The notes under the pieces were generated by a model that did no database searches, was not told the origin of the DNA, and worked only from the letters and a program-made list of their open reading frames with translations. From Cenococcum geophilum 1.58 (Eukaryota > Ascomycota > Dothideomycetes > Gloniales > Gloniaceae), in contig KV748199.1 in assembly GCA_001692895.1 (NCBI GenBank), forward strand, positions 1,798,001 through 1,862,000: a stretch of 64,000 bases of DNA, given 5' to 3'. The translations under genes and the position numbers were made by a program. This document shows positions 14,646 through 45,229 of the stretch, piece after piece (the stretch's first letter is position 1; the number at the start of each line of letters is the position of its first letter).

Positions 14646-14778
14646 ATTAAAGTCTATATAATAAAGCTCTAAAATTAATTGGCTTATTACTTATAAACTT
14701 AGGTTAAAATTTACGTTAGGGGATTAACGTTCTAATTTGATATTTAATTAACGTTAGTTATAAACATAATCTCTCCAC
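14646..14778. other. Short AT-rich spacer
   Basis: RIPped sequence between the LINE 3' tail and the hAT-2 target duplication; nothing recognised. Confidence 0.5.
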
Positions 14779-14934
14779 CGCTAGTCTAGTGTATTTAATA
14801 GTTAGCCTAGCTGCGAGCTTAAGCCTTATAGCTGACTGACTGCGTTAATTAGATCGCTCGCTATTCGCTAACTATTAAGTAACATACGCTGACTATTACG
14901 CTATTAGCTAGCTGTCCTAATTTGGAAAGTAGTA

Positions 14935-15010
14935 TCCCTTGCACCGTCAAGTGCCTTAAGATTGTGGCCCGTGCGAGTAATAATCTTAAGGCACTCGACG
15001 GTGCAAGGGA
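14935..15010. mobile_element. 76-bp micro-MITE (hairpin) with TA duplication
   Basis: TCCCTTGCACCGTCAAGTGC opens a 29-bp arm (14935-14963) whose reverse complement closes the element (14982-15010) with one A/G mismatch; the loop is 18 nt. TA flanks both sides (14933-14934 and 15011-15012). In hAT-1 the corresponding subterminal region lacks this hairpin, which supports insertion. TA duplication and long inverted ends point to Tc1/mariner-type mobilisation. Confidence 0.75.
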
Positions 15011-15850
15011 TAGACTTTGTGGTATTTTATTGCGGATTTTTGGTAGCACCTCTCTATATACAAATATTAACATTATATAATTAAAATTTAGCCTTAATTT
15101 ATCTAATATAGTATTTAAATATAGCTAAATTTATCCTACGCACCTATAGAGGCTTAAAAAGGTAAGTAGAATAGTTGGTAGTAAGGGCTCTAGAGGCTCT
15201 ATTTATAATTAAATATAAAGCTTTATTAAATATATCTTACTAGGCTAACTTTTCTACCTCTATAGCTGGCTTATAGCTAGTAAGATTAATATTTAAGTAG
15301 TTAATCTATAAACCCTACGCGGTACTAAGAAAGTTAAGTAATATATAGATTATAAATTTAATAAAAGGAAGAAGTAGAGGAAGAAGCTTTATTGCCTAGC
15401 TAATACGTAAAATATAATATATGTTATATTTTATATAGGTAATAAAATAGTAAATTTTAGTATAGGAGAACGTGTAAGGTATATTGCCTAGGTATATATA
15501 CTTGCTAATAAGTAAGCAATTAAGTAAGAGGCCTTATTTTGGGCAATTAAGCAAGTAAAGGAAGCGCTTACTTACTTATTTATTGCTTATATATAGTTAA
15601 TTTAGTAGTAGCGGTGGTTAATAGATTATTTTTTTTTGCTTTTTTAGAGTTAATTTCTAATGGCTAAGGTAATGTAAATAGTGTAAATAAGTCCTTTTAG
15701 GCAACCGCTAAGTCTATTTAAAAACGGTTTTCTGTGCCGACCTAAAGTCTTAGGCAACTTACTTTTTCGATCCTCTAAGATCGCGATATACGCGCTGCCT
15801 TTACCGCGTCCGCCTTATAAACTGCCTCCGAGTCGCGTGAATAAGCCTAT

Positions 15851-16077
15851 TATTACGGCACTGGCAGAACTTTGCACTGGTAAGTTGCTATAAATTGCCA
15901 CAGATTGCTATATATTGTAATTACGTAACGTAAAGATCTTATAAAACACTAAACGGCATTACTTTTTTTCTCCTTTCCTTTTCCTAGCTTTAGATTCTTG
16001 TTTATAGACAATCTAATTACATAGGCTTACGCGACCCTTTTACTGTGCTTATATCTTAATTAACTAGGTCACTAATA
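15851..16077 (+). repeat. Gypsy A 5' LTR
   Basis: Starts TATTACGGCAC (TGTTACGGCAC with one G-to-A change) and ends ..CACTAATA (from ..CGCTAACA). Length equals that of the other LTRs of the family (227 bp). Confidence 0.9.
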
Positions 16078-16254
16078 TTATCTAAAGCTTACTCTACTCT
16101 TTTTTCCTAAGAAGGAACTTAAATATATCTATAAGAATATAGAATAGGACCCTAAGGATATTACTAGGACTATAAGGATAGAACCTAAAAGAATAGAACA
16201 GAACCCTAAGGAAAGAACCCACAAGATATATATAGACTAGAACCCCTAAAGAAA

Positions 16255-18117
16255 TTACCTAGAATTACCTAATACCTCTACTATTATACTATAAACTATA
16301 GTAGTAGGTAAAGCAGCTATAGGACCCTTAAATACTTTAGATAAANAAATAATTAANNTTTTAACCCCCNAGGCGGAGCTTNCGGCTACTAATACTAAAA
16401 TTAAATAACTACAAGAGCTACTTAAAGCTAGAGATACCCCTATATCTAATAATAAGTTATTATTAGACAACTAAAGACTTACTATAGTCCTTTAGGCCCT
16501 ATTTTAGCGCCTTAGTAGATTTATTAAGGCCTATATAGTACTAAAGCAGTTAGTAAAGGTTGTAGATCCCTTACTACTTATAGACGGAACTAACCCTATA
16601 TTTAATAATTAGAAGCTTTAATTATAGGATAAGCTTAAAGTTAATATAAACTACTTCCCTAATGCCTAAGCTAGAATAGCCTATATTTTTAGCCGTACTA
16701 GCAAAGACGCCTAGACGTATTTACGCCCGCGATATACTAAAGACTTAGTAAACCCCTTTATCTTTAAAGAAGAAATAATTAAATACTTATCTTTTATTTA
16801 TAAAGACCCTTTTAAAGTATAAAACGCCTACTTTAGCTATAAAAGCCTAAATATGAAAATAACGGAGACCTTTTTAGCCTTTTAAACCCGCTTTTTATAT
16901 CTAGTAGGATAGGCCTAGATTCCCTAAGAAGATTTACTATTAAACCTCTTTAATAAGCTTACCTTAGACCTATAGTGGGCCGTATTACTAGCTTATACTA
17001 TAGTATAGACGTTAAAGGAACTTATAGACTATTGCCTAGCTATTAATTAAGGCCTTTATTAAATTAAGGTACGTACTAACTAGCTAAAAACTAGAAACCT
17101 TATAAATTAGGCCGTAAGTACTATAAATACGGCCCGTAGTGCCCTAGTATAATTAACAACTTCTATAGTTAACCTAGTAGTTAGCCGTATAGCTACTTTT
17201 ACTATAGGCCTAGTATACACCTAGCCTATATATAGCGACCCCTATATATAGGCCCTTAGCGATTAAGGAGCTTACTTCTTATATAGTTAAATAGGCTACC
17301 TTATAAGGAATTACCTAATAAAGGTAAAGATAAATAAGGTTTTATTAATTTAGGAGGATAGTATAAAGCTAGAAAAAGAGAAACCCTAAAGGAAGACTCC
17401 TCTCTAGGGTTAAAAGGGATTAATATATTATATATTAATCTAGGTCGGCTAATTAGTAGAAGAAGCTATACTATCCCTTATACTTTATTTTATAATAGAT
17501 ATTAAGTTTTAACCTTTACTTTAGCTAACTTAGAAGTAAATACCTTTACCTTAATTAATATAAAGTGCGCTATAAAACTGGCTAACTTTTTAAATATACC
17601 CCTTAAAGAACTACCTAAACTAGTCCTTATTTGCGGTTATAACGGATAGATAAAACTACCTATTATAACTATCTTATGGATCTACCTCTGTGTTAACAAA
17701 CGAAAGTAATATAATATCCCCTTTCTTATTACGGACCTTAGAAGCTATAATATAATCTTAAGGAGAAAATAGCTAGCCTATTTAGGCTTATAGCTTAATA
17801 TACAAAATAGGTAGCTTATTTAGCCTAAAACTATACCCCTAATGCCTTTCTTTATAAAAGAGATTAATATTATAATAGAAAACCTTATACGGCTATAAAT
17901 AAACACTATTTACTAGGCTAATGTAATGCGTAAGGACTAGGCTTTTAAGAAGGATATATAGCTTAATCCGTAACGGATCCGTATACTACGCCGCCCCTAA
18001 ACTGCCTATATTATACTACCCGTACTAAAGACTTAGGAAGTTAGTAGTAGCCTAGCTAAGTCCCTAATAGAGAACTTAGGCCCTACGTAGCTATAAAAAA
18101 AGGCTAGGGATATTAGA
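16255..18117 (+). pseudogene. Gypsy A gag-protease, decayed
   Basis: Gag-like frame from about 16255 to 17400 with many stops (e.g. YFPNA.ARIAYIFSRTSKDA at 16640-16700, KHYLSFIYKDPF-like at 16760-16810). Protease near 17500-17790: ALANLEVNTFTLINIKCA (family DSGANAFTL) and YNIPFLITDL. It stops where Gypsy B inserted (duplication TTAGA at 18113-18117) and resumes at 38485. Six undetermined bases lie at 16346-16382. Confidence 0.75.
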
Positions 18118-18344
18118 TGCTAGCGACTTAGTTAATTAAGATATAAGTACGGTAAAAGGGTCGCGTAAGCCTATGCGATTAGATTGCCTATAAACAAGAA
18201 TCTAAAACTAGGGAAAAGAAAGGAGAAAAAAAGTAGCGCCGTTTAGTATTTTATAAGATCTTTACGTTATATAATCGCAATATATAGTAATCTGTGGCAA
18301 TTTATAGCAACTTACCGGTATAAAGTTTTGCCAGTGCCGTAATA
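18118..18344 (-). repeat. Gypsy B 3' LTR
   Basis: Begins TGCTAGCGACTT and ends GTGCCGTAATA on the plus strand, the reverse complement of the family LTR; 227 bp. Confidence 0.9.
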
Positions 18345-18399
18345 TTACCCCCCCTCTAAAAAAGCCTACCCTTAGGCTTTATTACTAAAAGTCTTAGTA

Positions 18400-20659
18400 A
18401 GAGAATCTAACTAATTAAATAACTTTAACCGCCGGTTAAAGTTCCTAAATATCTTAATACCTTATATAACTAAGAAATTTTTAGGGTGTTTTTATCCTTA
18501 TATTCTTCTAGTAGCTTATTATCTTTATTATACTAGCATTCTATCTACTCGTTTAGGTACTTTAGCGGTCCGGGTTTATTAGGGTAACGGCTATAAAACT
18601 TTTAAAGCTTATAGGGACTACCTATAAAGTTCTATATAGGGTACTAAGTAGGGTTTAAGTTATATCCTTTCTGACTAATATAATACTTTAATATTCCCTT
18701 TATAAGTTTATAGGCTAGCATTTCTTTAATTTCCTATTTATTATCGCTATTAACTTAAATTAGTAGGGGAGGTTTATTCTTTTATCTAGGTAGTAGGTTA
18801 TTTATAGCTTTCTATAGCTTATCTAGTAAGAAAATAGGGTAAACTTTAATTAAGTCTAGGAGCTTAATCTTATACAAGTTACCTACTTTATTAAGAATCT
18901 TATATAGTTCTACTATTTTATAGTCTAGCTTATAGCTAGGCCGTTCTATCTTCTAGTTCTTTGTTATAATCTAAACTATATTACCTATAGTAAAGTTAGG
19001 CTCGCGCCTATACTTATTTACCTACTATTTTATTAATTTCTAGACCTTTTTTAGGTTTATATAGGCTACTTTCTAGGCTTCTTCTAAGCGCTTAGCGTAC
19101 TATTAGGCTTCCTTATAAGATAGTTTTTCGCATATAGTTTGGGGCCCTTCTAGTCTTTCCTAGTTAAAGCTTATATAGGGTAGGTAACCCATTTCTAGTT
19201 AAATAGGGGCAAATCCGGTAGAGTTATAGGGTAGGGTTGCTTAGGCGTAGTTTATTAAGGGTAATAGTTTAGCTTAATTATCCTAAAAGTAGTTAATAAA
19301 AGGCCAGAGTCTTTAGTCTAAGTATTAATTTATAATCTCCGTTTAACCGTTTATCTAGAGGTAATATACTATAAAAAGCTTTAGCTAAATACCTAAGATC
19401 TAGGTAAACTTATTTTAAAAGGCTAATATAAACTATAGCCCGCGGTCGGATATAATAGTATTTAGTAATCCGTAAATTTGGTAAACGTAATAGATATATA
19501 GTTAGGCTGCCTCTTTAGCGTTAATATTTTTATAATAGGGAATTAAAAACGGGCGCTTACTAAAGCGGTTAATTAGGATTATAACTATATTATATTTATT
19601 ACGGTTTAGGGGTAGCATATAAAAGTCTATAGAGATATATTACTAGGGGCGGTTAGGTATTAAAAGGGGTTTTAATAATCCTAGGGTCTTATTTTATAGA
19701 ATTATAGACCTATAGCAGTTATTATAGTTCTATATATAGCGGTTAATATCTATAATTATTTTAGGCTAATAGTAGCGGTTGCTAATAATTCTATAGGTCT
19801 TATTTTTTCTAGGGTAGGCCGTAGAGACCTAGGTATATACTTTAGCAATAAGCTAAGTTCGTAAGTTCTATTCCTCTACTACTACTAGCCGTTTATAGTG
19901 CTTAAGTAGTCCACTTTTAAGGGACTATAGGCTAGAAACGTTCTTTACCTTTTCGCGGTACTCCTATAGAGAAGGGGCCGTATAGTTTACCTATAGTAGT
20001 TTATTAATAAGGTCTAGTTCTATAAAGTTAATAGGGTATATCTTAATATCTAAAAAGTCTATATTTAGTTCTGCCCGTATTTAGAAGTTAAGGTACTCTA
20101 GTTATAGTAGCGCTTAGGTTTATAATAAGATCTTTACAGCTATCTAGTTATTTATATCCTNTTTACNCCTTATAANAGCGTTTATANNGTTAGTNGCGCC
20201 TNGCCTATATATAATTAGGAAGTTAAACTAAGATAGGGTGTCCGCCTAGCGCGCCTATTAGGCTATAAGGGCCTTTATTATTATAAAATATTCTAAGGCC
20301 TTATAATTGGAAACTACTTAAATAAACTTAGGGGTGCCTTCTAGTTAGGCTCGCCAGTGCTAAAAGCTAAAGATAATAGCCAGCATTTCTTTATCGTAAA
20401 TTAGGTAGTTTAGCTTAGCATTTACTATAGTCTTTAAATAGTAAGCAATAGGGTGCTATTCTCTATTTATCTACTCTTAGGAGTAAACGCTAGCTATAAT
20501 ACTATCTAAGGTATTAGTTTCTAGCATTAAGGGCCATTCTAGGTTAAAGTAGGTAAGTAAAGGAGCAGTAACTAGTCGCTTCTTAAGCTCGTTAAAGGCC
20601 TGCCTATATACGGTATTAAAGTAAAAGGGCTAGTCCTTATAGGTAAGTAGGCTTAGTAG
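18400..20659 (-). pseudogene. Gypsy B RNase H-integrase-chromodomain part, decayed
   Basis: Minus-strand counterpart of the 3' half of the family: chromodomain region (about 18450-18720), integrase core (about 19000-19900) and RNase H tail (about 20170-20560), recognised by their alignment with Gypsy A and C. Frames are broken by RIP stops. It is truncated at 20664 by Gypsy C and resumes at 34618. Seven undetermined bases lie at 20161-20202. Confidence 0.75.
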
Positions 20660-20664
20660 CTAAG

Positions 20665-20891
20665 TATTACGGCACTGGCAGAACTTGGCAGAACTACGCA
20701 CCGGCAAGTTGCCACAGATTGCCGTATAATGCGGTCACGTGACGCGAAGATCGTATATAGCTTCGAGCGGCGCTCCCCTTCTTCTCCTTTCCTTTCTTTA
20801 GCTTTAGATTCTCGTTTATAGACAATCCAATCGTATAGGCTTGCGCGACCCTTTTGCCGAGCTTATATCTCGATTAACTAAGTCGCTAACA
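20665..20891 (+). repeat. Gypsy C 5' LTR
   Basis: 227 bp from TATTACGGCACTGG to GTCGCTAACA; differs from its 3' partner almost only by C/T and G/A changes. Confidence 0.92.
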
Positions 20892-21089
20892 TTATCTAAA
20901 GCTTACTCTACTCTTTCTTTCTAAAAAGGAACTTAAATATATCTACAAGAACACAGAATAGGACCCTAAGGATATCACTAGGACTACAAAGACAGGACCT
21001 AAAAGAAAAGAACAGAACCCTAAGGAAAGGACCTACAAGACACGTATAGACTAGAACCCCTAAAGAAATTACTAGAATTACCTAATACC

Positions 21090-24000
21090 CCTACTACCAT
21101 GCTACGAACTATAGTAGCAGGTAAAGTAGCTATAGGACCCTTAAATACTTTAGATAAAGAAATAATTAACGTTTTAACCCCCTAGGCGGAGCTTACGGCT
21201 GCCAATACCGAAATTAAATAATTTCGAGAGCTGCTTAAAGCTAAAGATACCCCTATATCTAATAATAAGTCATTATTAGACAACTAAAGACTTACTATAG
21301 TTCTTTAGGCCCTATCCTAGCGCCTTAGTAGATCTACTAAGGCCTATATAGTACCGAAGCGGTTAGTAAAGGTCGCGGACCCCCTACTACTTATAAACGG
21401 AACTGACCCTACCTTTAATAATTAGAAGCTTTAATTACGGGATAAGCTTAAAGTTAATGCAGACTACTTCCCTAACGCCTAAGCTAGAATAGCCTACGTC
21501 TTTAGCTGTACTGGCGGAGACGCCCAGACGTATTTACGCCCGCGATACACTAAAGACTTAATAGACCCCTTTATCTTTAAAGAAGAAATAATTAAACACT
21601 TATCTTCTATTTATAAAGACCCTTTTAAAGTATAAAACGCCCGCCTTAGCTATAAAAGCCTAAACATAAAAATAATAGAGACCTTTTCGGCCTTCTAAAC
21701 CCGCTTTCTACACCTGGCCGGATAGGCCTAGATCCCCCAAGAAGACCTACTACTAGACCTCTTTAATAAGCTTACCCTAGACCTATAGCGGGCCGTATTA
21801 CTAGCTTATACTATAGTATAGATATTAAAGGAACTTACGGACTATTGCCTAGCTATTAACTGAGGCCTTTATTAAATTAAGGCACGCGCCAACTGGCTAA
21901 AAACTAGAAACCTTATAAACTAGGCCGTAAGTACTATAAGTACGGCCCGTAGTGCCCTAGCATAATCGGCAACTCCTACAGCTAACCTAGCAGCTGGCCG
22001 CGCAGCTACCCCTACTGCGGGCCTAGTATACACCCAGCCTATATATAGCGACCCCCGTATATAGGCCCTTAGCAATTAAAAAGCTTACTTCTTATACGGT
22101 TAAATAAGCTACCCTATAAGGAACTGCCTAATAAAGGCAAAGATAAATAAGGTCCTGTTAATTTAGGAGGATAGTATAGAGCCGGAAAAAGAGGAACCCT
22201 AGAGGAAGACTCCTCTCTAGGGTTAAAAGGGATTAATATATTATATATTAATCTGGGTCGGCTAGTTAGTAGAAAAAGCTGCACTATCCCTTATACTTTA
22301 TTTTATAATAGATATTAAGTTTTAACCTCTGCTTTAGCTGACTTAGGAGTAAATGCCTTTACCTTAATTAATATAAAGTGCGCTGTAAAACTGGCTAACT
22401 TTTTAAATATACCCCTTAAAGAACTGCCTAAACCAATCCCTATTTGCGGTTATAACGGACAGATAGGGCTACTTATTACAACTATCTTGCAAATCTACCT
22501 TCGTGTTAACGGACGAAGGTAGTATAACGTCCCCTTTCTTATTACGGACTTAGAAAGCCACAATATAATCTTAAGAAGAAAATAGCTAGCCTATTTAGGC
22601 TTATAGCTTAAAATACAGAGTAGACGGCTTATCTAGCCCAAAACTCTACCCCTAACCCCTTCCTTTATAAAAGAAATTAGCATTATAATAAAAAACCTTA
22701 TACGGCCCTAAATTAATACTATTTACTAGGCCAATGCTATACGCAGGGACCAGGCCTTTAAGAAGGACATATAGCTTAACCCGTAATAGATCTGTATACT
22801 ACGCCGCCCTTAAACTACCTATATTACGCCACCCGTATTAAAGACCTAGAGAGTTAGTAGTAACCTAGCTAAGTTCCCTATAGAGAACCCTACGAAGCCA
22901 CAAAGGAAAGCTAGGGATATTAGACGCTATACTAAACTAATAAATAGGAAGGATAACTTACGGAAAATAGAACGTAAGCTAAGGAAGACCATAAACCCTA
23001 TACCGCAAACCACGGCCTAACGGACGCTAAAGAAACCTACGGACCTCCTACTAGTTAATATCTGCTGTATTGGCGCTATAGGATTCTACCGGAACCTAGT
23101 TCAGCCTAATACCGTTACCTTTACGACTAGCCTATACAAAATTAACCGAATAATTAAGAAAAAGAAAAGCGAGCTTAGTAGATAGAAAAGTAGGCTTATA
23201 GATAAAGAACTAGTGGAGCAAAAACTGTCTAATTGACACCGGAAATTCAAGGACGTATTCTCTAAGGCAGCGTCTAACATGCTTCCACCCTATTAACTAT
23301 ATAACTACAAGATTGAGATTAAGCAAGATAAGGGAAGCACCCTTAGCTTTAGCCCTCTCTACCTATAGTCTATTACCGAATTATAGGCTATAAAGTAGTA
23401 CCTTATTGACAACCTAAATAAGGGCTTTATTAAGCCTAGCTAAGCCCCTTTTAACTTACTTATTCTCTTTATTAAAAAGCTAAATAGAGGACTACGCTTC
23501 TATATTAACTACTATAAGCTAAATAATATAACCCGCAAGGACCGCTACCCGCTGCCCTTACTTAATAAGACTCTTACCTAAATAAGTAGAGCTAAGGTTT
23601 TTATAAAGCTCGATATCCGCTAGGCCTTTTACTAAATTAGGATAGACCCTGGGTTTAAGGATCTTATTATATTCCGGACCTATTACGGGACGTATAAATA
23701 TAAGGTACTTCCTTTTAGACTAACTAATAGACTAGCTACGTACCAGCGGTATATAAACGATATACTCTTTAACTACCTTAATAACTTCTATACGGCCTAT
23801 CTAGATAATATTATAATCTACTCGGAGAATAAACTAGAATACGAGGAGCACGTCTATAAAGTCCTATAATAGCTCCGCGAAGCTGGCCTCCAGGCCAATA
23901 TTAAAAAGTTAGAATTTAGTGTTAAGCGTATAAAGTACCTAGGTTTTATTATCAGCATAAACGGAATTAAGGCCGACCTAGAGAAAACAACTATAATTAA

Positions 24001-25928
24001 CTAGTGGACGCCCCCACGGACCGTAAAGGGGGTGCAATCGTTTTTAGGTTTCTATAACTTCTACTAACACTTTATTAAGAACTACAGCAGGATTGCCCGG
24101 CCTCTTAACCGCCTTACTAAAAAAGACCAGCCCTTTTACTTTAACGCTATATATATACAGGCCTTTAATAAGCTTAAAAAACGGCTAGTGTCGGCCCCCC
24201 TATTTACCCACTTTAACCCAGAACAGCCCTTAATACTAAAAACTAATGCCTTAAACGGCGTAATAGCTAGTGTTTTTTCCCAGAAGCAACCGGACAGAGA
24301 ATGGTACCCTGTTATATACTATTTAAAGACTATAATAGATGCTAAACTAAACTACCACATCCATAATAAAGAAATGCTGGCTATTATCTCTAGCTTTTAG
24401 CACTAGCGTGTACAGCTAAAGGGGACCCCTAAACCTATTAAAGTAGTATTAGATTATAAGGCCCTAGAATACTTTATAACAACTAAGGCCCTTACGGCCC
24501 GATAGGCATGCTAGGCGGATATCCTATCTTAGTTTAACTTCTTAATTATATATAGACTAGGCGCTACAAACTATGCGGATGCTCTTACTAGGCGTAAACA
24601 AGACCTAAGTGACTATACGGCTGCGAAGATCTCATTACGGACCTAGATGCTACTACAACTAGAGCACCTTAACCCCTAGATATAGGCAGAACTAAGTACA
24701 GACTCCTTAGGCACTGAGATGTATCCTATTAACCCTTTAGGACTTAACTTAATTAACGAATTGCTGTAAATAAACCGTACGGCCCCTTCTTTATAGAACT
24801 ACCGTGAAAAGGCAAAGAACGTTACCAGCCTATAGTCCCTCGAAAATGGATTACTTAAGCATTAGGAACAGCTAGTAGTGGCAAAGGAACAGAACTTACG
24901 GACTCGGCTTATTGCTAAAGCACATACCTAGGTCTCTACGGCCCACCCTAGAAAGAATAAGACCCATAGGATTATTAGCGACCGCTACTACTGGCCCGGA
25001 ATAGTTATAGATATTAACCGCTATATACGGAACTGCAATAACTACTATAGGTCTATAATTCCACGAGATAAGACCCTAGGACTATTAAAACCCCTTCTAA
25101 TACCCGACCGCCCCTAGTAATATATCTCTATAGACTTTTATAAGCTACCTCTAGACTGTAATAAATATGATATAGTTATAATCCTAATTAACCGCTTCGG
25201 CAAGCGCCCGTTCTTAATTCCCTGTTATAAGAATATTAATGCTAAAGAGGCAGCCCAACTATATATCTATTACGTCTACTAAATTTACAGACTACTAGAT
25301 ACTATTATATCTAACTATAGGCCGTAGTTTATATTAGCCTTTTAGAATAAGTTTACCCGGATCCTAGGCATTAAGCTAAAGCTTTCTATAGTATATTACC
25401 CCCAAATAGACGGTTAAACGGAGATTGTAAATTAATACTTAGACTAGAGACTCCGGCCTTTTATTAACTACTTTTAGAATAACTAGGCTAAACTATTGCC
25501 CTTAATAGACTACGCCTAAGCGACCCTACCCTACGACTCTACCGGATTTGCCCCTATTTAACTAGAAATGGGTTACCTACCCTATATAAGCTTTNACTNG
25601 GAAAGACTANAAGGGCCCTANACNNTANNNGAAAAACTATCTTATAAGGAAGCCTAGTAGTACGCTAAGCGCTTAGAACAAGCCTAGAAAGTAGCCTGTA
25701 TAAACCTAAAAAAAGCCTAAAAATTAATGGAATAGCAGGTAAATAAGCATAGGGGCGAGCCTAACTTTACTATAGGCGATATAGTCTGGGTTATAATAAA
25801 GAACTAGAAGATAGAATGGCCTAGCTGTAAGCTAAACTATAAGATGGCAGAACCGTATAAGATTCTTAACAAAGTAGGCAACTTATATAAGGTTAAGCTC
25901 CCAGACTTAATTAAAGTCCACCCTATCT
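21090..25928 (+). pseudogene. Gypsy C gag-pol, partly decayed
   Basis: Gag about 21090-22180. Protease about 22320-22610: ALADLGVNAFTLIN (family DSGA) and VPFLITDLESHNIILRRK. Reverse transcriptase about 23330-24110: [42 protein letters not shown] (catalytic YLDD decayed to YLDN). RNase H about 24220-24600: LILKTNALNGVIASVFSQKQ (family ETDASD) with an open stretch of 70 codons at 24188-24400. Integrase about 24900-25640: ISDRYYWPGI and CNNYYRS zinc-binding remnant, ISIDFYKLP, and IVYYPQIDG.TEIVN with the last acidic residue. Interrupted at 25928 by Gypsy D. Undetermined bases at 25595-25630. Confidence 0.85.
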
Positions 25929-33432: not shown

Positions 33433-33476
33433 GTTATTTAACTCTCTATATTAACACTATAACTAGGTAGTGATTG

Positions 33477-33901: not shown

Positions 33902-33906
33902 TATCT

Positions 33907-34384
33907 TCTTACTAAATAAGCTGCAAATAACCCACTGCCTGGATAAAAGAATGAACCTCCCCTGCCAATTCAAGTTAACGACGATAATGAATAAGAAATT
34001 GAAGAAATACTAGCCTATAAACTTATAAAGGGAACGTTAAAGTATCGTGTTAGTTAGAAAGGATATAACCTAGACCCCACTTAGTACCCTATATAGAACT
34101 TTATAGGTAGCCCCTATAAGCTTTAGAAGTTCTATAGCCGTTACCCTAATAAACCCGGACCGCTAAAGTACCTAAATAAGTGGATAGAATGCTAGTATAA
34201 CAAAGACGATAAGCTACCAGAAGAACATAAGGACAAAAACGCCCTAGAAATTTCTTAGTTACGTAAGGTGCTAAGATATCCAGGAACTTTAACCGGCGGT
34301 CGAAGTTGTCTAATTAGTCAGATTCTCTTACTAAGACTTTTAGCGGCAAAGCCTAAGGGCAGGCTTTTTTAGAGGGGGGGGGTA
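33907..34384 (+). pseudogene. Gypsy C C-terminal chromodomain segment
   Basis: Continuation of Gypsy C after the Gypsy D insertion. The frame reads EILAYKLIKGTLKYRVS.KGYNLDPT.YP, which fits a chromodomain (aromatic cage Y..W....W, the Trp codons now stops), then KFYSRYPNKPGPLKYLNKWI. The same segment exists in Gypsy A (41590-41790) and inverted in Gypsy B. Chromodomains at the integrase C-terminus can guide insertion into H3K9-methylated chromatin. Confidence 0.8.
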
Positions 34385-34385
34385 A

Positions 34386-34612
34386 TGTTACGGTACTAGC
34401 AGAACTTAGCAGAATTACGCACTGGCAAGTTGCTACAGATTGCCGTATAATGTGGTCACGTGACGCGAAGATCGTATATAGCTTCGAGCGGCGCTCCCCT
34501 TCTTCTCCTTTCCTTTCTTTAGCTTTAGATTCTCGTTTATAGACAATCCAATCGTACAGGCTTACGCGACCCTTTTGCCGTGCTTATGTCTCGATTAACT
34601 AAGTCGCTAACA
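34386..34612 (+). repeat. Gypsy C 3' LTR
   Basis: 227 bp from TGTTACGGTAC to GTCGCTAACA, preceded by the G-rich polypurine tract at 34371-34385. Confidence 0.92.
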
Positions 34613-34617
34613 CTAAG

Positions 34618-37600
34618 TAATTCTACTATAGTTCTTAATAAAGCGTTAGTAGAAGTTATAGAACCCTAAGAATAACTATACCCCCTTTACGGTCCTTAGG
34701 GGTACCTATTAGTTAATTATAGCTGTCTTTTTTAGGTCTACCTTAATCCCGTTTATACTAATAATAAACTTTAGGTACTTTATACGCTTAATACTAAATT
34801 CTAACTTCTTAATATTAGCTTAGAGGCTAGCTTCCCAAAGCCGTTATAGGACTTTATAGATATACTCTTTATATTCTAGTTTGTTTTTAAAGTAGATTAT
34901 AATATTATCTAGGTATATAGTATAGAAGTTATTAAAGTAGTTAAATAATACGTTATTTATATATCGTTGGTATATAGCCGGTCTATTAGTTAGTCTAAAA
35001 GGTAGTACTTTATATTTATATATTTTATAATAGGTCTAAAACATAATAAGGTCTTCTAATTTAGGGTTTATTTTAATTCGGTAAAAAGCCTAGCGGATAT
35101 TAAGCTTTATAAAGATCTTAGCTCTACTTATTTAGGCTAAAGTCTTATTAAGTAAAGGTAGTAGGTAGCGGTCTTTAAGGGTTAAATTATTAAGCTTATA
35201 GTAGTTAATATAAAAATAAAGTCCTCTATTTAGCTTTTTAGTAAAAAGAATAGGTAAGTTAAAAGGGGCTTAACTAGGCTTAATAAAGCCCTTATCTAGG
35301 TTATTAATAAGATACTGCTTTATAGCCTATAATTTAGCAGTAGATTACTATTAGAGGGGGCTATAGCTAAGGGTAACCACCTTATCTAGCTTAATTTTAA
35401 TTTTATAGTTATACGGTTGGTAAGGCGGGAGTATATTAGACGCTACTTTAGAGAAGGTATTTTTAAATTTCTAGTATTAATGGGGTAGTTTTTATTCTAC
35501 TAGCTCCTTATCTATAAGCTTACCTTTCTCTTGGGCTAGGGCTTCTTTTTCTTTAATTATTTAATTAATTTTATATAAGCTAGTTGTAAAGGTAATAGTA
35601 TTAAGCTAAACTAGGTTTTAGTAAAATCCTATAACGTGATCCATAAGCTAGTGGCCCAGTATAAGCGAGTGGCCCACTTCAAAACCCCACCAAAAAAACC
35701 AAAGATCGTTCTTTAATATCTTAACAACCGCTTAATAATAAATTATGAAAATTTAAAATTAGACTCTCTTACCTATTTTAAGACCCCTATTAAAGTTTTA
35801 AAGTAATTTAATAAGTGGTTTTTAAGATATAATAATTAGGCTTAAATTTAAAAGCTAAATCTTAATATAGTAATAATAGCTAAACTAATTACTCTAAAAC
35901 TTTAATAGAGGTCTTTAAATAAGTATAAAAGTCTAATTATAAATTTTTATAATTTATTATTAAGCCGTTGTTAAGATATTAAAGAACGATTTTTGGGGTT
36001 TTTGGTGAGTTTTTGGGGTGGGCCACTCGCTTGTGTGGGCCACTAGCTTGTGGATCACGTTAGCGCTAATATAGCAGATATTAACTGGCGGGAGGTCTAT
36101 AGGTTTCTTTACGGATATTTATTAAGCCGTATTTTATAGTATAGGGTTTATAGTCTTCCTTAGCTTACGTTCCATTTTCTATAAGCTATCCTTTTAGTTT
36201 ATTAGTTTAGTATATCGTCTATCCCTAGCCTTTTTTTATAGCTGCGTAGGGCCTAAGTTCTCCATTAAAGACTTAGCTAGGCTACTACTAACTTCCTAAG
36301 TCTTTAATGCGGGTAGTATAACATAGGTAGTTTAGGGGCGGTGTAATATACAGATCTGTTACGGATTAAGCTATATATCCTTTTTAAAAGCCTAATCCCT
36401 ACGCGTTATATCGGCCTAGTAAATGGTGTTTATCTACGGCCGTATAAGGTTTTCTATTATAATACTAATCTCTTTAATAAAGGAAGGCGTTAGGGGTATA
36501 GTTTTAGGCTAGATAAGCTGCCTATTCTATATGTTAAGCTATAAGCCTAAATAGGCTAGCTATTTTCTCCCTAAGATTATATTATAGCTTCTAAGGTCCG
36601 TAATAAGAAAGGGGACGTTATACTACCTTTATCTATTAACGCGGAGGTAGATCTATAAGATAGTTATAATAGGTAGTTCTATTTATCCGTTATAACCGTA
36701 AATTGGAACTAGTTTAGGCAGTTCTTTAAGGGGTGTATTTAAAAAGTTAGCTAGTTTTACAGCGTACTTTATATTAATTAAGGTAAAGGTATTTACTCCT
36801 AAGTTAGCTAAAGTAAAGGTTAAAACTTAATATCTATTATGAAATAAAGTATAAGGGATAGTGNAGCTTNTTNTANTAACTAGCNAACNTANATNNATAT
36901 ATAATATATTAATCCCTTTTAACCCTAGAGAGGAGTCTTCCTCTAGGGTTCCTTTTTTTAGCTCCGTACTATCCTTCTAAATTAATAAGACCTTATTTAT
37001 CTTTACCTTTATTAGGTAGTTCCTTATAAGGTAACCTATTTAACTATATAAGAAGTAAGCTTCTTAATTACTAAGGGCCTATATATAGGGGTCGCTATAT
37101 ATAGGCCGGGTATATACTAGGCCCGTAGTAGGGGTAGCTACGCAGCTAGCTACTAAGTTAACTATAGGAGTTGCCAATTATACTAGGGTACTATAGGCCG
37201 TACTTATAGTACTTACGGCCTAGTTTATAAGGTTTCTAGTTTTTAGCTAGTTAGCGCGTGCCTTAATTTAACGGAGGCCTTAGTTAATAGCTAAGTAATA
37301 GTCCATAAGTTCCTTTAACGTCTATACTATAGTATAAGCTAGCAATATAGCCCGCTATAGGTCTAGGGTAAGCTTATTAAAGAGATCTAGTAGTAAGTCT
37401 TTCTAGGGGATTTAGGCCTATCCTGCTAGGTATAAAAAGCGGGTTTAAAAGGTTAAAAAGGTCTCCGTTATTTTTATATTTAGGCTTTTATAGCTAAGGC
37501 GGGCGTTTTATACTTTAAAAGGGTCTTTATAAATAGAAGATAAGTATTTAATTATTTCTTTTTTAGAGATAAAGGGGTTTATTAAGTCTTTAGTATATTA

Positions 37601-38060
37601 TAGGCGTAAATATATCTAGGTATCTCCGCTAGTACGGCCGAAAACATAAGCTATTTTAGCTTAGGCGTTAGGGAAGTAGTCTATATTAACTTTAAGCTTA
37701 TCCTATAATTAAAGCTTCCAATTATTAAATATAGGGTTAGTTCCGTTTATAAGTAGCGGGAGATCTATAACCTTTACTAACTACTTCGGTGCTATATAGG
37801 CCTCGGTAGATCTACTAAGGCGCTAAGATAGGGCCTAAGGGACTATAGTAAGTCTTTAGTTATTTAATAATGACTTATTATTAGATATAGGGGTATCTTT
37901 AGCTTTAAGCAGCTCTTACAGTCGTTTAATTTTAGTATTAGCAGCCGTAAGCTCCGCCTAGGGGGTTAAAACGTTAATTATTTCTTTATCTAAAGTATTT
38001 AAGGGTCCTATAGCTACTTTACCTACTACTATAGTTCGTGGTATAGTAGTAGGGGTATTA
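34618..38060 (-). pseudogene. Gypsy B gag-protease-reverse transcriptase part, decayed
   Basis: Minus strand: gag about 36950-38060, protease about 36560-36860, reverse transcriptase about 34680-35480 (YLDN box near 34910-34925). Recognised by frame and by correspondence with Gypsy A and C. A 427-bp fold-back MITE interrupts it between protease and reverse transcriptase. Undetermined bases at 36864-36896. Confidence 0.75.
35634..36060. mobile_element. 427-bp fold-back MITE with TA duplication
   Basis: Almost the whole element is one inverted repeat: arms of roughly 190-200 bp begin ACGTGATCCATAAGCTAGTG on the left and mirror it on the right (..CACTAGCTTGTGGATCACGT). TA flanks both ends (35632-35633, 36061-36062). 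Arms differ mainly by C/T and G/A, as after RIP. No ORF. Such ends and the TA target suggest mobilisation by a Tc1/mariner-type transposase. Confidence 0.85.
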
Positions 38061-38252
38061 GGTAATTCCGGGTAATTTCTTTAAAGGTTCTAGTCTGTAT
38101 ATATTTTATAAGTTCTTTCCTTAGGGTTCTATTCTATTCTTTTAGGTTCTATTCTTATAGTCTTAGTAATATTCTTAGGGTCCTATTCTATATTCTTATA
38201 GATATATTTAAGTTCCTTCTTAGGAAGAAAAAGTAGAGTAAGCTTTAGATAA

Positions 38253-38479
38253 TATTAGTAACTTAGTTAATTAAGATATAAGCACGGCAAAAGGGTTGCG
38301 TAAGCCTATATAATTAGATTATCTATAAACGAGAATCTAAAGCTAGGGAAAGAAAAGGAGAAGAAGAGTAGCGCCGTTTAGTATTTTATAAGATCTTTAC
38401 GTTATATAATCGCAATATACGGCAATCTGTAGCAATTTATGGCAACTTATCGGTATAAAGTTCTACTAGTGCTATAATA
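38253..38479 (-). repeat. Gypsy B 5' LTR
   Basis: 227 bp, from TATTAGTAACTT to TGCTATAATA; heavily RIPped relative to the other LTRs. Confidence 0.9.
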
Positions 38480-38484
38480 TTAAA

Positions 38485-41400
38485 TAATACACTAAACTAA
38501 TAGACTAAAAGGATAACTTATAGAAAATGGAATATAAGCTAAGAAAGACTATAAACCCTATACCGCAAAATACAGCTTAATAAATATTTATAAAGAAACC
38601 TATAGATCTTCCACCAGTTAATATTTACTATATTAGCGCTATAGTATTCTACTAAAACCTAGCTTAGCCTAATACCGTTACCTTTATAACTAGCTTATAT
38701 AAAATTAATTAAATAATTAAAGAGAAAGAAGCCTTAGCTTAAAAGAAAGGCGAGCTTATAGATAAGGAGCTAGTAAAATAAAAACTACCCCATTAATACT
38801 AGAAAATTAAAAATACCTTCTCTAAAGTAGCGTCTAATATACTTCCGCCTTACTAACCATATAACTATAAAATTAAAATTAAGCCAGATAAGGTAGTTAT
38901 CCTTAGCTATAGCCCCCTCTAATAGTAATTTATTGCCGAATTATAGGCTATAAAGTAGTATTTTATTAATAACTTGGATAAGGGCTTTATTAAGCCTAGT
39001 TAAGCCCCTTTTAACTTACCTATTTTCTTTACTAAAAAGCTAAATAAAGGACTTTATTTTTATATTAACTACTATAAGCTTAATAATTTAACCCTTAAAG
39101 ACCGCTACCTACTACCTTTACTTAATAAGACTTTAGCCTAAATAAGTAGAGCTAAGATCTTTATAAAGCTTAATATCCGCTAAGCTTTTTACTAAATTAG
39201 AATAAACCCTAAATTAAAAGACCTTATTATATTTTAAACCTATTACGGAACGTATAAATATAAAGTACTACCTTTTAAACTAACTAACGGACTGGCTATA
39301 TATTAACGATATATAAATAATATACTATTTAACTACCTTAATAACTTCTATACTATATACCTAGATAATATTATAATTTACTCTAAAAATAAACTAGAAT
39401 ATAAAGAGCATATCTATAAAGTCCTATAACGGCTTTAAGAAGCTAGCCTTTAAGCTAATATTAAGAAGTTAGAATTTAGTATTAAGCGTATAAAGTACCT
39501 AAAGTTTATTATTAGTATAAACGGGATTAAGGTAGACCTAAAAAAGACAGCTATAATTAACTAATAGGTACCCCTAAGGACCGTAAAGGGGGTATAGTTA
39601 TTCTTAGGGTTCTATAACTTCTACTAATACTTTATTAAAAACTATAGTAGGATTACCCAGCTACTAAGCCTACTTACCTATAAGGACCGGCCCTTTTACT
39701 TTAATACCGTATATAGGTAGGCCTTTAATAAGCTTAAGAAACGACTGGTTACTACTCCCTTACTCGCCTACTTTAACCTAAAACGGCCTTTAATACTAGA
39801 AACCGATGCCTTAAATAGTGTTATAGTTAGCGTTTACTCCTAAAAGTAGATAAACGGAGAATAGCACCCTGTTACTTACTATTTAAAGACTATAATAGAT
39901 GCTAAGCTAAACTACCTAATTTATAATAAAGAAATGCTAGCTATTATCTCTAGCTTTTAGCACTAGCGAGCCTAACTAAAAGGCACCCCTAAGTCTATTT
40001 AGGTAGTTTCCGATTATAAGGCCTTAGAATATTTTATAATAATAAAGGCCCTTATAGCTTAATAGGCGCGCTAGGCGGATACCCTATCTTAGTTTAACTT
40101 TCTAATTATATATAGGCTAGGCGCTACTAACTATATAAACGCTTTTATAAGGCGTAAATAGGATATAAATAACTAGATAGCTATAAAGATCTTATTATAG
40201 ACCTAAGTGCTACTATAACTAGAGTACCTTAACTTCTAGATACGGGTAGAACTAAATACAGACTCTTTAGATGCTAAGATATGCCCTATTAACTCCATAA
40301 AACTAGACCTTATTAATAAACTACTATAGGTAAACTATACGGCCCCTTTTCTATAGGAGTACTATAAAAAGGTAAAGAACGTTTCTAGCCTATAGTCCCT
40401 TAAAAGTGGACTACTTAAGTACTATAAACGGCTAGTAGTAGTAGAGGAATAGAACTTATAGACTTAGCTTATTGCCAAAGTATATACCTAGGTCTCTACG
40501 GCCTACCCTAGAAAAAATAAGACCAATAGGATTATTAGCGACCGCTACTATTAGCCTAGAATAATTATAGATATTAACCGCTATATATAGAACTATAATA
40601 ACTACTCTAGGTCTATAATTTTATAAGATAAGACCCTAGGACTATTAAAACCCCTCCTAATACCTAACTGCCCCTAGTAATATATCTCTATAGACTTTTA
40701 TAAGCTACCCCTAGACTATAACGGATATAATATAGTTATAATTCTGGTTAACTGCTTTAGTAAGCGCCCGTTCTTAATTCCCTATTATAAAAATATTAAT
40801 ACTAAAGAGGCAGCCTAACTATATATCTACTACGTTTACCAAATTTATAGACTGCCAGATACTATTATATCCGACTATAGGCTATAGTTTATATTAGCCT
40901 TTTAGAATAAGTTTACCTAGATCTTAGGTATTAAGCTAAAGCTTTCTATAGTATATTACTCTTAGATAAATAGTTAAACGGAGATTATAAATTAATACTT
41001 AGACTAGAGATTCTGGCCTTTTATTAACTACTTTTAGGATAACTAGGCTAAACTATTACCCTTAATAAACTACGCCCAAGCAACCCTACCCCATAACTCT
41101 ACTGGATTTACCCCTATTTAACTAGAAATAGGTTACCTACCCTATATAAGCTTTAACTAGGAAAGACTAAAAAGGCCCTAGACTATACGTAAAAAACTAT
41201 CTTATAAGAAAGCCTAGTAGTATACTAAGCGCTTAGAAGAAGCTTAAAAAGTAGCCTATATAAACCTAAAAAAGGCCTAGAAATTAATAAAATAGTAGGT
41301 GAATAAGTATAGACGCGAGCCTAACTTTACTATAGGTGATATAGTTTAGATTATAATAAAGAACTAGAAGATAGAACGGCCTAGCTATAAGCTAAACTAT

Positions 41401-41960
41401 AAGATAGTAAGACTATATAAAATTCTTAATAAAGTAGGTAACTTATATAAGGTTAAGCTCCTAAACTTAATTAAAGTTTACCCTATTTTCTTATTGGATA
41501 AGCTATAGAAAGCTATAAATAACCTATTACCTAAATAAAAGAATAAACCTTCCCTACTAATTTAAGTTAATAGCGATAATAAATAGGAAATTAAAGAAAT
41601 GCTAGCTTATAAACTTATAAAGGGAATATTAAAGTATTATATTAGTTAAAAAGGATATAACCTAGACCCTTATATAGAACTTTATAGGTAGTCCCTATAA
41701 GCTTTAAAAGTTTTATAGCCATTACCCTAATAAATCTAGATCGCTAAAGTACCTAAATAAGTGGATAGAATGCTAGTATAATAAAGATAATAAGCTACTA
41801 AAAGAATATAAGGATAAAAACGCCCTAGAAATTTCTTAGTTATATAAGGTATTAAAATATTTAGGAACTTTAACTAGTGGTTAAAGTTATCTAATTAGTT
41901 AGATTCTCTTATTAAGACTTTTAGCAATAAAGCCTAAGGGCAGGCTTTTTTAGAGGGGGG
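38485..41960 (+). pseudogene. Gypsy A reverse transcriptase-RNase H-integrase-chromodomain, decayed
   Basis: Continuation of Gypsy A after Gypsy B. Reverse transcriptase about 38900-39680 with YLDNIIIYS at about 39358-39384; RNase H about 39780-40130 (LILETDALNSVIVSVY, better preserved than in Gypsy C: ETDA retained); integrase about 40440-41160 (ISIDFYKLP at 40680-40710); chromodomain about 41590-41790. Many Trp and Gln codons are stops. Confidence 0.8.
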
Positions 41961-41965
41961 GGTAA

Positions 41966-42192
41966 TGTTACGGCACTAGTAGAACTTTGCACCGGTAAGT
42001 TGCTACAGATTGCTATAGATTGCCGTATATTACGATTATATGACGTAAAGATCTTATAAAATACCAAATGGCGCTACTTTTCTTCTCCTTTCCTTTCCCT
42101 AGCTTTAGATTCTTATTTATAGATAATCCAATTACATAGGCTTGCGCGACCCTTTTGCCGTACTTATATCTCGATTAACTAAGTCGCTAACA
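41966..42192 (+). repeat. Gypsy A 3' LTR
   Basis: 227 bp from TGTTACGGCAC to GTCGCTAACA; followed by the duplication CCTAT. Confidence 0.92.
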
Positions 42193-42730
42193 CCTATTAA
42201 TTAATGGTAGAGGAGTTTAGTGGGTAATATACTGCTACTAGGCGAAGCTATAGCGGATTTTCTATATAACTTTAGATTCTATACTATTTTGGTAAGTAAT
42301 TAATAAGTAAGTAAGTAGACGTAATTTTAAGGCTAGTAAGCAAGTAAGTAAGCGGAGGGCCTTTAAATCGGGCAATTAAGCAAGTAGAGAGGTATTTTAC
42401 TTAGTTACTTACTTATTAGCAAGTCTGGGTATATAATAGGGAGTAGGTAAGCCGAGTATAAGTTATAGGAGAGTTGATAGAAAAGAGGACGATATAGTAA
42501 AGAGTATAGTAATAGCCTTATATAGAGAGAGACAAACCGATAAGGAGGATAGGAGGGCTGAAAGCCTAAGTAAGGGGCTAAAAGAACCTTTATAGAACGT
42601 GTTTACGGCGCGTAATAGAGATATTAGGGAAATACTTTATTTATGTCGGTAGGGGGGTACTTAGGCAGTCTTTTTAGGCTCGGCGACGTATACGTAATAG
42701 ATTACGTAATAGTACGCGGGCCACCTTATA

Positions 42731-44929
42731 TACTACCTCGTCAATTCTAGTGGTTAGCGCTTTTATTAAGCTACTAATTAACCTAAATTTAGTGCATTCC
42801 GTCTTAGTAGCTAAATATTAAAAGGAGACTACCGAACAACCTTACCTAATGGTCAATTTAAAGCTTTTTAACGCCTCTGCTAGCCGCATTATAATTAGGT
42901 GTATTAGTAAACTCTATGCGGTAAGGAACCTAACTTAGAAAGCCTCTACTAATTAATAATACGTTTTTTAGTTTCCTACCCCTCTTCTAAGCCACTAACG
43001 CGTTATGATAATCCTCAACTTCCTTAAGCCTCTATTACGACCTTCCTTAAGCCTCTATTATAACCTTTGCCTTATTCTTCTATTCTAGCATCTAAATAAC
43101 CTTTTTAGTGGTAATAAAGTTTAAAAATGGCTTGCTTTTGTCCTAGGTGACTTTGTAGAAGTTAAAGATAGGCCCTTAGGTATATTAATTACGCTGTTAA
43201 AATAGATATTAATGGCGGTGGTTATAAATAAGGTTTCTAAGTTTAGACGAATATTAGGTCTTAGCGCGATTATAAGGGACTTTAGATAGCTCCGCAGATT
43301 TAAGTATAAAGATGTTTATCTACGCCTATTATAAGTTAATACTATCTTTACTACTTTTTATACTAAATTTGTATATTCCTATAATAAATTCCAACTAAAA
43401 TCTTTTAGATTCTATCCTTAAAGGTATTTACTATACCTTCTCCTAGGTATAATCCTTTCTATATAAAAGGAACTTTAGAACCTACTTTACCTAATCTTTT
43501 TAGAGCTCTACTACGCCTTTCTAGCTTTAGAAGCTTCTTTAGCTTATTTACTCCTTCCTTACCTTATAATATAACTATACTAAATACTCCCTTTACTCGC
43601 TCTGCTATATCTAGTTCTTTTACTCTAATACCTACTACCCTAAACTATTGTATTTACTAAGTAATTGCTCGTTTTAATAGATAGAAAATATATAAGGAAT
43701 AGGAGTGGGAGGAGTAAGCTATAGAATATATTTAACGTCGCTAATGGCTTTAGGAAAGTAACACTTAAGCGCTTATTCCTTACTTTCTAAGATGCATAAT
43801 TAAAGGCCTTTATTACTACCTTTAAGAACCTGCCTTTTATATTGCTGCATTAGTTAAGTAACTATATTCTACTATTTACCGTATTATTAATAAAGCACAG
43901 ACCCTAATACGTGGTGGCTATTGCAATACTCTTATATATAGCTTGCTAATTTGGCGTTAACTAGTTAATTTCCTAGAGTTAAATACTTGGGTACGTTGCC
44001 TTACCTACTTAGAGCTTTCCTTCTATATAGGAGTCCCTTATTCCGACTTTATAGTCGCCTAATATTTTAAGAAAGAGGGCTTTTAATATTACGTTGCTTA
44101 TATAAAGCCCTAGCTTACTATAGCTCACTATTACGCCCGGTTAGCATTTATACTAGCTTACCGTCACTTCTAAAAAGAGGATTAGTGGAGAGTTATATAG
44201 ATAAATAAGGCAGCTATATATTATAGTAGGCACTAGCGGCTTTATATTATTAGAAGACCTAGTAACCGATTTTATCCTAACTACCTTTATTTTAGGTTTA
44301 CTAACGTACCTTATATAATAATATAGGCTGCATTCTACGGTATAGAAAAAGGGCCTTTACTATTTTAGAATAAGGAAGAATAGGGTAATATTATGGCGTA
44401 GGGCTTCCTAGATTATATATATCTAAAGCTTAAAGAATTCTATAATTTTTATAATGGCCGTTTAGAATGTAATAAAGACTTAAATAGCTAGGCGGAAGCC
44501 TTGCCTATTAATAAAAGAAGTAATATAAGTAGCTATTAAATCTAAATAGGAGAATCTAAAGGCCTGCTACTTTAAGGATCTAGTTACTTCTATGCCTATA
44601 CGCCTTTAGGCAGTAATTAAAGTAAAAGGGGGACCTACTAAGTAGTAGAGGATAGTAGAATGCTTAGAGGACGATTAGGATCTTAGAGGACGATTAGGAG
44701 CTTAGAGGAGATATTTAGACACTTATTTGGCTACTGTGACTTTAGAAATATTTGTATATAGGCAATCTACTATACAATCATTGGTTTTAAAAAGCTTTAT
44801 AAATTTTTAATATTGAGGTCTTTTGAAGCTCGCTGCCAAGACGGGGAAACTCATACTAATTTGTATGAGGATTTCCGCCCGAGAGGCGTCACTAGTAAGG
44901 CGCTAACCACCGGAATTGACGAGGTGGTG
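42731..44929. mobile_element. 2.2-kb TA-flanked transposon with ~32-bp inverted ends, product unidentified
   Basis: The left end (from 42731, TACTACCTCGTCAATTCTAG) and the right end reverse complemented (CACCACCTCGTCAATTCCGG) agree over about 32 bp; all mismatches but the innermost are C/T or G/A. TA flanks both ends (42729-42730, 44930-44931). Ends, target site and length suit a Tc1/mariner or pogo-type element. Both strands have long RIP-interrupted frames; I could not recognise a DDE transposase in either, so orientation and product are open. Confidence 0.75.
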
Positions 44930-45229
44930 TAGATATCTTCTTGGGCTATCGAGCCCCTTAGGTTCTTCCTTATAGGGCCTTTTATATATATATTTTTCCG
45001 CCAGCCTTATTAGTGGTCTGATAATTTACTATAGCTAAGTAAGAGATTCCCATAGATTTCTTATTGCTTAGCGTATAATTAGCCAACCGGATCTCCTTAA
45101 CTTCTGCTAAAGCTTTAACTTACTACTAAATCTTACCACTAAGGCAGCGAGCTGCTAGCTAGCTGCAGTCTTATAGCTGACTGTCACAACTCTATAAGCT
45201 CGCTGACTCTTGGACACACTGCGCTAGTC

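What the first reader, a model, noticed from the sequence alone, without database searches (positions are those of the whole stretch)
14779..45229. Five-deep nested transposon stack with its order readable from target duplications
hAT-2 (CGCTAGTC) contains a TA-flanked element, which contains Gypsy A (CCTAT), which contains Gypsy B reversed (TTAGA/TTAAA), which contains Gypsy C (CTAAG), which contains Gypsy D reversed (TATCT). Removing each element with one duplication rejoins the next outer element in frame order: Gypsy A protease to reverse transcriptase, Gypsy B RNase H to reverse transcriptase, Gypsy C integrase to chromodomain. All six A-C LTRs measure 227 bp and both D LTRs 425 bp, which cross-checks the borders. 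RIP load visibly falls from outer to inner copies, as expected if outer ones are older.
Basis: seen in the sequence. Interest (0 to 1): 0.85.

Follow-up and report, generated by a model that had tools for sequence, protein, structure and literature searches.

The report
Seven-layer nest of fungal jumping genes
A 30-kb stretch of what looks like a fungal chromosome holds jumping genes that landed one inside another six times in a row, a well-preserved but ordinary record of how such genomes swell, with mutation damage that does not simply follow age.

Summary
The nest is real and slightly deeper than claimed. Gypsy A, B, C and D sit inside one another with exact borders: six 227-bp LTRs, two 425-bp LTRs, no gaps within pairs, duplications CCTAT, TTAGA/TTAAA, CTAAG, TATCT. 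At nine junctions inside the outer hAT, copies elsewhere in the same 177-Mb genome run across without the insert. Two corrections. First, the single "TA-flanked element" is two short elements, each with an 8-bp duplication (AGAACGTG, GGTATATA); the chain is hAT-2 > MITE > MITE > A > B > C > D, seven elements. hAT-2 also holds a 76-bp hairpin and a 179-bp solo-LTR-like repeat split by a TA-flanked 2.2-kb element; B holds a further MITE. Second, RIP load does not fall steadily inward. LTR-pair mismatch falls A 15.4%, B 12.8%, C 5.3%, but D, which must be younger than C, has 8.5% (p = 0.16), and the hAT layer is not the most depleted. RIP-free transversions fit A and B before C: the C subfamily is about five times less diverged. 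Nested clusters in a RIP-affected fungus are published (PMC4522978). Ordinary in kind; useful as a calibration case.

The parts
14787..45221 (.). Layer 1: hAT-2, internally deleted copy; TSD CGCTAGTC (14779-14786/45222-45229)
   Evidence: TSD exact; ends TAGTGTATTT and CAGTGTGTCC; matches the 3.2-kb copies L075/L076 at 14788-14935, 15010-15304, 15295-15440, 42595-42643, 45024-45208, lacking about 2.3 kb of their middle
14935..15010 (.). 76-bp hairpin (palindromic) insertion in hAT-2, TA on both sides
   Evidence: 31-nt arms 97% complementary; 14 of 14 loci with a hit run across without it; coordinates
15475..42593 (.). Layer 2: short MITE with TAAGG-like ends, TSD AGAACGTG (15467-15474/42594-42601)
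   Evidence: TSD; 11 of 12 loci with a hit run across without it, 1 to 18 gap columns in the six listed; repeat elsewhere, 39 other scored matches of 667 first-look candidates
15499..42427. Layer 3: hAT-type MITE with CAGACTTGC ends, TSD GGTATATA (15491-15498/42428-42435); probably an internally deleted relative of longer copies (inferred)
   Evidence: TSD; of 9 copies elsewhere 5 have exact 8-bp duplications, 2 imperfect ones, 2 had fewer than both ends found; host runs across in L064 and L066, 2 of 2
15851..42192 (+). Layer 4: Gypsy A, LTRs 15851-16077 and 41966-42192, TSD CCTAT (15846-15850/42193-42197)
   Evidence: 9 of 9 loci with a hit run across
18118..38479 (-). Layer 5: Gypsy B, LTRs 18118-18344 and 38253-38479, TSD TTAGA/TTAAA (18113-18117/38480-38484)
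   Evidence: 20 of 20 loci with a hit run across
35634..36060 (.). 427-bp MITE inside Gypsy B, beside C; ends ACGTGATCCA, TA duplication as read by eye
   Evidence: 20 of 20 loci with a hit run across without it (the six listed show 3-4 gap columns, so the exact duplication length is unsettled)
20665..34612 (+). Layer 6: Gypsy C, LTRs 20665-20891 and 34386-34612, TSD CTAAG (20660-20664/34613-34617)
   Evidence: 21 of 22 loci with a hit run across; RT, RNase H, integrase zinc finger, weak SH3_Tf2-1
25929..33901 (-). Layer 7: Gypsy D, LTRs 25929-26353 and 33477-33901, TSD TATCT (25924-25928/33902-33906)
   Evidence: 11 of 13 loci with a hit run across; RT on minus strand, tblastn E 3e-16 to C's RT piece
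42644..45023 (.). 179-bp solo-LTR-like repeat in hAT-2 (TG...TA ends, TSD ATTTA 42639-42643/45024-45028), split by the next part
   Evidence: 9 of 13 loci with a hit run across without it (8-9 gap columns in those listed)
42731..44929 (.). TA-flanked TIR element, about 2.2 kb, inside the 179-bp repeat; 35-nt arms 86% complementary
   Evidence: with the joined site as query 37 of 41 rows span the join (2 of the other 4 are the window's own halves; 40 of 159 candidates scored)

Best explanation
This is a stratified nest of transposable elements in an AT-rich, RIP-mutated block that ends at the right edge of hAT-2. An internally deleted hAT inserted first; a MITE landed in it, a second MITE in that, then three copies of one Gypsy family (A, B, C, of two subfamilies), each inside the last, and finally a different Gypsy (D). 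Each insertion left its own target duplication (shown). After insertion, repeat-induced point mutation (RIP) turned C to T and G to A in the copies (shown as nearly transition-only divergence; the RIP pathway itself is inferred). The order is fixed by interruption, not by mutation counts. Why Gypsies landed in Gypsies is inferred: much of the AT-rich DNA here is older transposons, so new insertions often hit one, and a chromodomain on the A-C integrase may favour silenced chromatin.
For: Exact LTR lengths and duplications; loci elsewhere that run across the join at all nine junctions tested and at the 2.2-kb element; LTR-pair differences 35, 29, 11 and 35 transitions against 0, 0, 1 and 1 transversions, no gaps; 52 of 110 of these transitions at CA, 35 at CG, 18 at CT, 5 at CC; TpA/ApT 1.61-2.02 in the seven chain layers against 0.81 in the first 500 bases right of the stack; no stop-free frame of 150 aa or more inside the stack; mean transversion distance within the A/B type 0.27%, within the C type 0.055%, between 2.5%; private transversions A 4/3530, B 2/3532, C 1/3949. 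Chromodomain-like stretch in C: 10 of 10 PDB matches with E up to 10 are chromodomain proteins, best 0.0038.
Against: D, the innermost, has more private transversions (13/3831) than C, though against only 2-4 relatives, so this bounds family divergence rather than insertion age. Other A/B-type copies range from 0 to 13 private transversions and C-type copies from 0 to 4, so the A-B-C trend is within scatter. D's LTR mismatch exceeds C's. Pfam gave no chromodomain for the two X-masked stretches. No empty site was seen for hAT-2 itself among 40 scored of 1632 candidates. No reads were available.
Confidence: 0.93

Rival explanations
1. The apparent nest is an assembly artefact in which reads from several repeat copies were joined.
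For: The layers are repeats with many copies, the kind of sequence that misassembles.
Against: A false join would not be expected to place matching target duplications at the borders nor equal-length LTR pairs; the contig is 2.25 Mb.
Confidence: 0.03
2. Part of the stack, such as the A-B-C arrangement, moved here as a block by duplication or recombination between copies rather than by successive insertions.
For: A, B and C are relatives in alternating orientation, so inverted copies could recombine.
Against: Each has its own duplication and its own LTR pair; C belongs to another subfamily than A and B; uninterrupted hosts exist at the junctions tested. Not searched: the same nested arrangement elsewhere in the genome.
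Confidence: 0.04
3. RIP load works as a clock and the layers simply record age from outside in.
For: LTR mismatch falls A, B, C, and A vs D is significant (p = 0.008); the share of T/A at variable sites falls A 0.673, B 0.619, C 0.262.
Against: D exceeds C in LTR mismatch (8.5% vs 5.3%, p = 0.16). D is ordinarily RIPped for its family: highest of 3 copies at one end, fourth of 5 at the other. RIP substrate index along the chain is 0.56, 0.27, 0.47, 0.22, 0.19, 0.45, 0.47 from hAT-2 to D (the two MITEs are short). C's load is typical of its own subfamily, 7th of 12.
Confidence: 0.2

Closest known systems
Nested TE clusters of Mycosphaerella graminicola (PMC4522978; section 8 read in full, other passages)
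   Same: LTR elements inserted into each other with mostly 4-6-bp TSDs in an AT-rich, RIP-affected fungus; 78 clusters of 7.5-63 kb, 2 to 7 different elements each
   Different: Deepest bracketed chain in its Table 4 is four elements (242 > 49 > 263 > 623); here seven, with DNA elements as the outer layers. That table lists only clusters with an LTR base element and verified TSD
Chromodomain-bearing Ty3/Gypsy elements (chromoviruses), e.g. MAGGY (recalled; search listing only)
   Same: RT, RNase H and integrase zinc finger pieces in C; chromodomain-like stretch at the end of pol; 5-bp TSD
   Different: Frames are broken by stop codons here; Pfam did not call the chromodomain
Fungal hAT elements and hAT-type MITEs (recalled)
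   Same: 8-bp TSDs, short terminal inverted repeats starting CAG
   Different: No transposase shown; hAT-2 lacks about 2.3 kb of its longer relatives' middle

Membership tests
Nested transposon cluster | Host element interrupted, host homology resumes on the far side | tested here: met
   nine junctions; tenth; not shown for hAT-2 in its own surroundings
Nested transposon cluster | Target duplication for each insertion | tested here: met
   B's two copies differ by one G/A; the duplication of B's extra MITE is not settled
Ty3/Gypsy LTR retrotransposon (A-C) | LTR pair with TG...CA ends and 5-bp TSD | tested here: met
   several ends read TA in place of TG or CA, RIP-type changes
Ty3/Gypsy LTR retrotransposon (A-C) | RT and RNase H before integrase | tested here: met
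   C: RVT_1 23636-23866, RNase H 24068-24397, Integrase_H2C2 24932-25114; B: RVT_1 only; A not scanned, joined by DNA homology
Chromovirus (A-C) | Chromodomain at the integrase end | tested here: inconclusive
   Pfam 0 of 2 stretches, from B and C; PDB 10 of 10 weak hits for C's stretch are chromodomain proteins, best E 0.0038
Ty3/Gypsy LTR retrotransposon (D) | RT and RNase H before integrase | tested here: inconclusive
   RT and RNase H in order on minus strand; protease-like piece below cut-off; integrase not found by Pfam
hAT (layers 1 and 3) | 8-bp TSD and short TIR | tested here: met
   layer 3's left end has lost two bases against its right end
hAT (layers 1 and 3) | hAT transposase | not tested
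   only three stop-free pieces of 42441-45221 were scanned, 0 of 3 matched, and these lie in the nested TA element; the longer relatives' middle was not scanned

The most novel reading that the evidence does not exclude
The A-C Gypsies home to silenced, RIP-mutated copies of their own kind through their chromodomain, so a RIPped copy becomes a landing pad for the next, and stacks like this grow by a feed-forward loop; RIP intensity then depends on the family and its copy number, not on depth in the stack.
Probability: 0.2. Interest if true: 0.45.

Novelty: new member of a known kind. Interest (0 to 1): 0.22.

Why it matters
Nests give insertion order without any clock, so they can test dating methods. 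At least one study of fungal TE ages assumes a constant RIP rate (PMC8759822, passages). In this stack LTR divergence is almost purely RIP-type (110 of 112 differences are transitions), and its order fails, weakly, at the innermost layer. A genome-wide set of such nests would show whether RIP-inflated LTR ages can be used at all and whether transversions do better.

Tried and rejected
Rejected: one TA-flanked element around Gypsy A. Copies elsewhere carry 8-bp duplications and hAT-type ends, and the hAT homology runs to 15470 and resumes at 42594, which exposed a second MITE outside the first. Rejected: the right arm of hAT-2 as plain hAT sequence; most of it (42731-44929) is a separate TIR element. 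The first RIP table was made before that was known, and its 'hAT' row is mostly this TIR element; it was replaced with the right pieces. Tried without result: Pfam on stop-free pieces of D other than a weak protease and on three pieces of 42441-45221; a chromodomain call by Pfam; an empty site for hAT-2 itself; longer stop-free chromodomain frames in ten other copies, none reached 30 aa. A first script of the copy comparison stopped on an error after printing its loads and was rerun with the part around the B-specific MITE left out. Not done: a genome-wide count of nests, for want of letters.
Full report
Size and repeat content recall Cenococcum geophilum (178 Mb, 81% repeats; PMC5023957, passages), but the species, and that it is a fungus, were not established; the RIP-like signature and genome size suggest an ascomycete.

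Borders. LTRs of A (15851-16077, 41966-42192), B (38253-38479, 18118-18344, reversed) and C (20665-20891, 34386-34612) are each 227 bp and those of D (33477-33901, 25929-26353, reversed) 425 bp; no pair has a gap. Target duplications are CCTAT, TTAGA/TTAAA, CTAAG and TATCT, and CGCTAGTC for the outer hAT. Random k-mer pairs from the region match with P 0.0027 for five bases and 0.00012 for eight. No stop-free frame of 150 aa or more lies inside the stack.

Independent test of nesting. Short flanks on either side of each insert were joined and compared with 67 loci of the same genome outside the window (76 held, nine overlapping the window left out). Loci whose hit crosses the join by at least 12 bases, of those with any hit: hairpin in hAT 14 of 14; TAAGG MITE in hAT 11 of 12; CAGACTT MITE in TAAGG MITE 2 of 2; A in CAGACTT MITE 9 of 9; B in A 20 of 20; C in B 21 of 22; MITE in B 20 of 20; D in C 11 of 13; 179-bp repeat in hAT 9 of 13. 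The printed alignments (up to six per junction) are free of gaps or nearly so for the hairpin, B in A and C in B, have 3-4 gap columns for the MITE in B, 8-9 for the 179-bp repeat, 10 for D in C, 12 for the CAGACTT MITE, 10-24 for A, and 1-18 for the TAAGG MITE. A genome search with the joined site of the 2.2-kb TIR element gave 37 spanning rows of 41; two of the others are the window's own halves. For hAT-2 itself no spanning copy was seen among 40 scored of 1632 candidates, so that outermost border rests on its duplication and ends.

Correction of the layer around A. Nine relatives of the sequence flanking A were held. Five have ends like CAGACTTGCTGATAAG and exact 8-bp duplications (CTCCTCCC in L046, ACGCTGCA in L047, GGGCCTAT in L048, CCTACGAA in L051, CTTATACT in L053); L050 and L054 have imperfect ones (two and three transition mismatches); in L049 and L052 both ends were not found. 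The window copy has GGTATATA on both sides. That MITE lies in another short repeat with TAAGG-like ends, duplication AGAACGTG, uninterrupted in L064 and L066 and present elsewhere. The main chain is thus hAT-2 > TAAGG MITE > CAGACTT MITE > A > B > C > D.

Other contents of hAT-2. Compared with 3.2-kb copies L075 and L076, hAT-2 lacks about 2.3 kb of middle sequence. It holds a 76-bp hairpin, and a 179-bp solo-LTR-like repeat (duplication ATTTA) that holds a TA-flanked TIR element at 42731-44929. Gypsy B holds a 427-bp MITE.

Gene content. In C, stop-free pieces match RVT_1 (7.2e-07), RT_RNaseH_2 (5.9e-21) and Integrase_H2C2 (1.1e-10) in Gypsy order and SH3_Tf2-1 (1.8e-05, below its cut-off) just before the D insertion. 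After D, a stretch with X at stops matches only chromodomain proteins in the PDB, 10 of 10 hits, best E 0.0038, while Pfam gave none for it or for B's counterpart. D's RT and RNase H lie on the minus strand (tblastn 3e-16 and 1.4e-07); whether D has a chromodomain is unknown.

RIP and age. Differences within LTR pairs are 35 transitions and 0 transversions (A), 29 and 0 (B), 11 and 1 (C), 35 and 1 (D); of the 110 transitions 52 are at CA, 35 CG, 18 CT, 5 CC. LTR divergence here is therefore almost all RIP-type, not a clock of ordinary substitution. Mismatch is A 15.4%, B 12.8%, C 5.3%, D 8.5%; A vs C p = 0.0006, B vs C 0.008, A vs D 0.008, B vs D 0.10, A vs B 0.50, C vs D 0.16. The first 500 bases right of hAT-2 have 1.38, and TpA/ApT drops from 1.73 in hAT-2 to 0.81, so the RIP signature stops at the element's edge. 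Within its own subfamily C ranks 7th of 12 in RIP load, and A and B 2nd and 3rd of 12 in theirs. These relatives were the best-scoring ones, so they are not a random sample.

RIP-free signal. Over about 2.5 kb (three C-type and one A-type locus cover only one of the two segments), transversion distances average 0.27% within the A/B type, 0.055% within the C type and 2.5% between types. C therefore seems to come from a separate, more recent burst, in agreement with its place inside B. Private transversions are A 4 of 3530, B 2 of 3532, C 1 of 3949 sites: right order, but other A/B-type copies range from 0 to 13 and other C-type copies from 0 to 4, so these do not separate the layers. D has 13 of 3831 against only two to four relatives, which measures how diverse family D is rather than when this copy landed.

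Elsewhere. Of 16 held loci of the A/B type (10) and family D (6), at least five show nesting on the flank that was seen, with only the window's own repeats as a library: L037 is an A-type copy in another A-C family copy and is itself cut by a D LTR, L044 an A-type copy that abuts D internal sequence, L004 a D in an A-C copy, and L007 and L008 D copies in a repeat also present left of the stack. L044 suggests that D-family sequence was present before at least one A-type insertion, so D may be a long-lived family.

Precedent. Nested clusters with verified duplications are described for Mycosphaerella graminicola (PMC4522978, section 8 in full and passages). The literature was searched; I make no claim that this locus is unpublished. 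The depth is notable against that one table; the kind is known.

Noticed in passing
window 13179-14646 and 62533-64000: Inverted pair of one repeat, 91.8% identical; D copies L007 and L008 elsewhere are inserted in this family or its neighbour at 12151-14658.
   Followed up: partly
window 14635-14732: 98-bp stretch just left of hAT-2 matches 38 other places at 91-100% identity, 34 of them at 96% or more, higher than most other repeats here; perhaps few RIP targets are left in it.
   Followed up: no
window 7521-8257: 257-bp tandem repeat, 2.9 copies, with a related single unit at 3935-4188.
   Followed up: no
L037, L044: Further nests: A-type in an A-C family copy and cut by a D LTR; A-type abutting D internal sequence.
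   Followed up: partly
L068: Another hAT copy carries the right part of the 179-bp repeat beside the same hAT sequence, with a different sequence beginning at the same TA.
   Followed up: partly
window 45230-45729: RIP signature stops at the edge of hAT-2: TpA/ApT 0.81 and substrate index 1.38 in the first 500 bases outside.
   Followed up: partly
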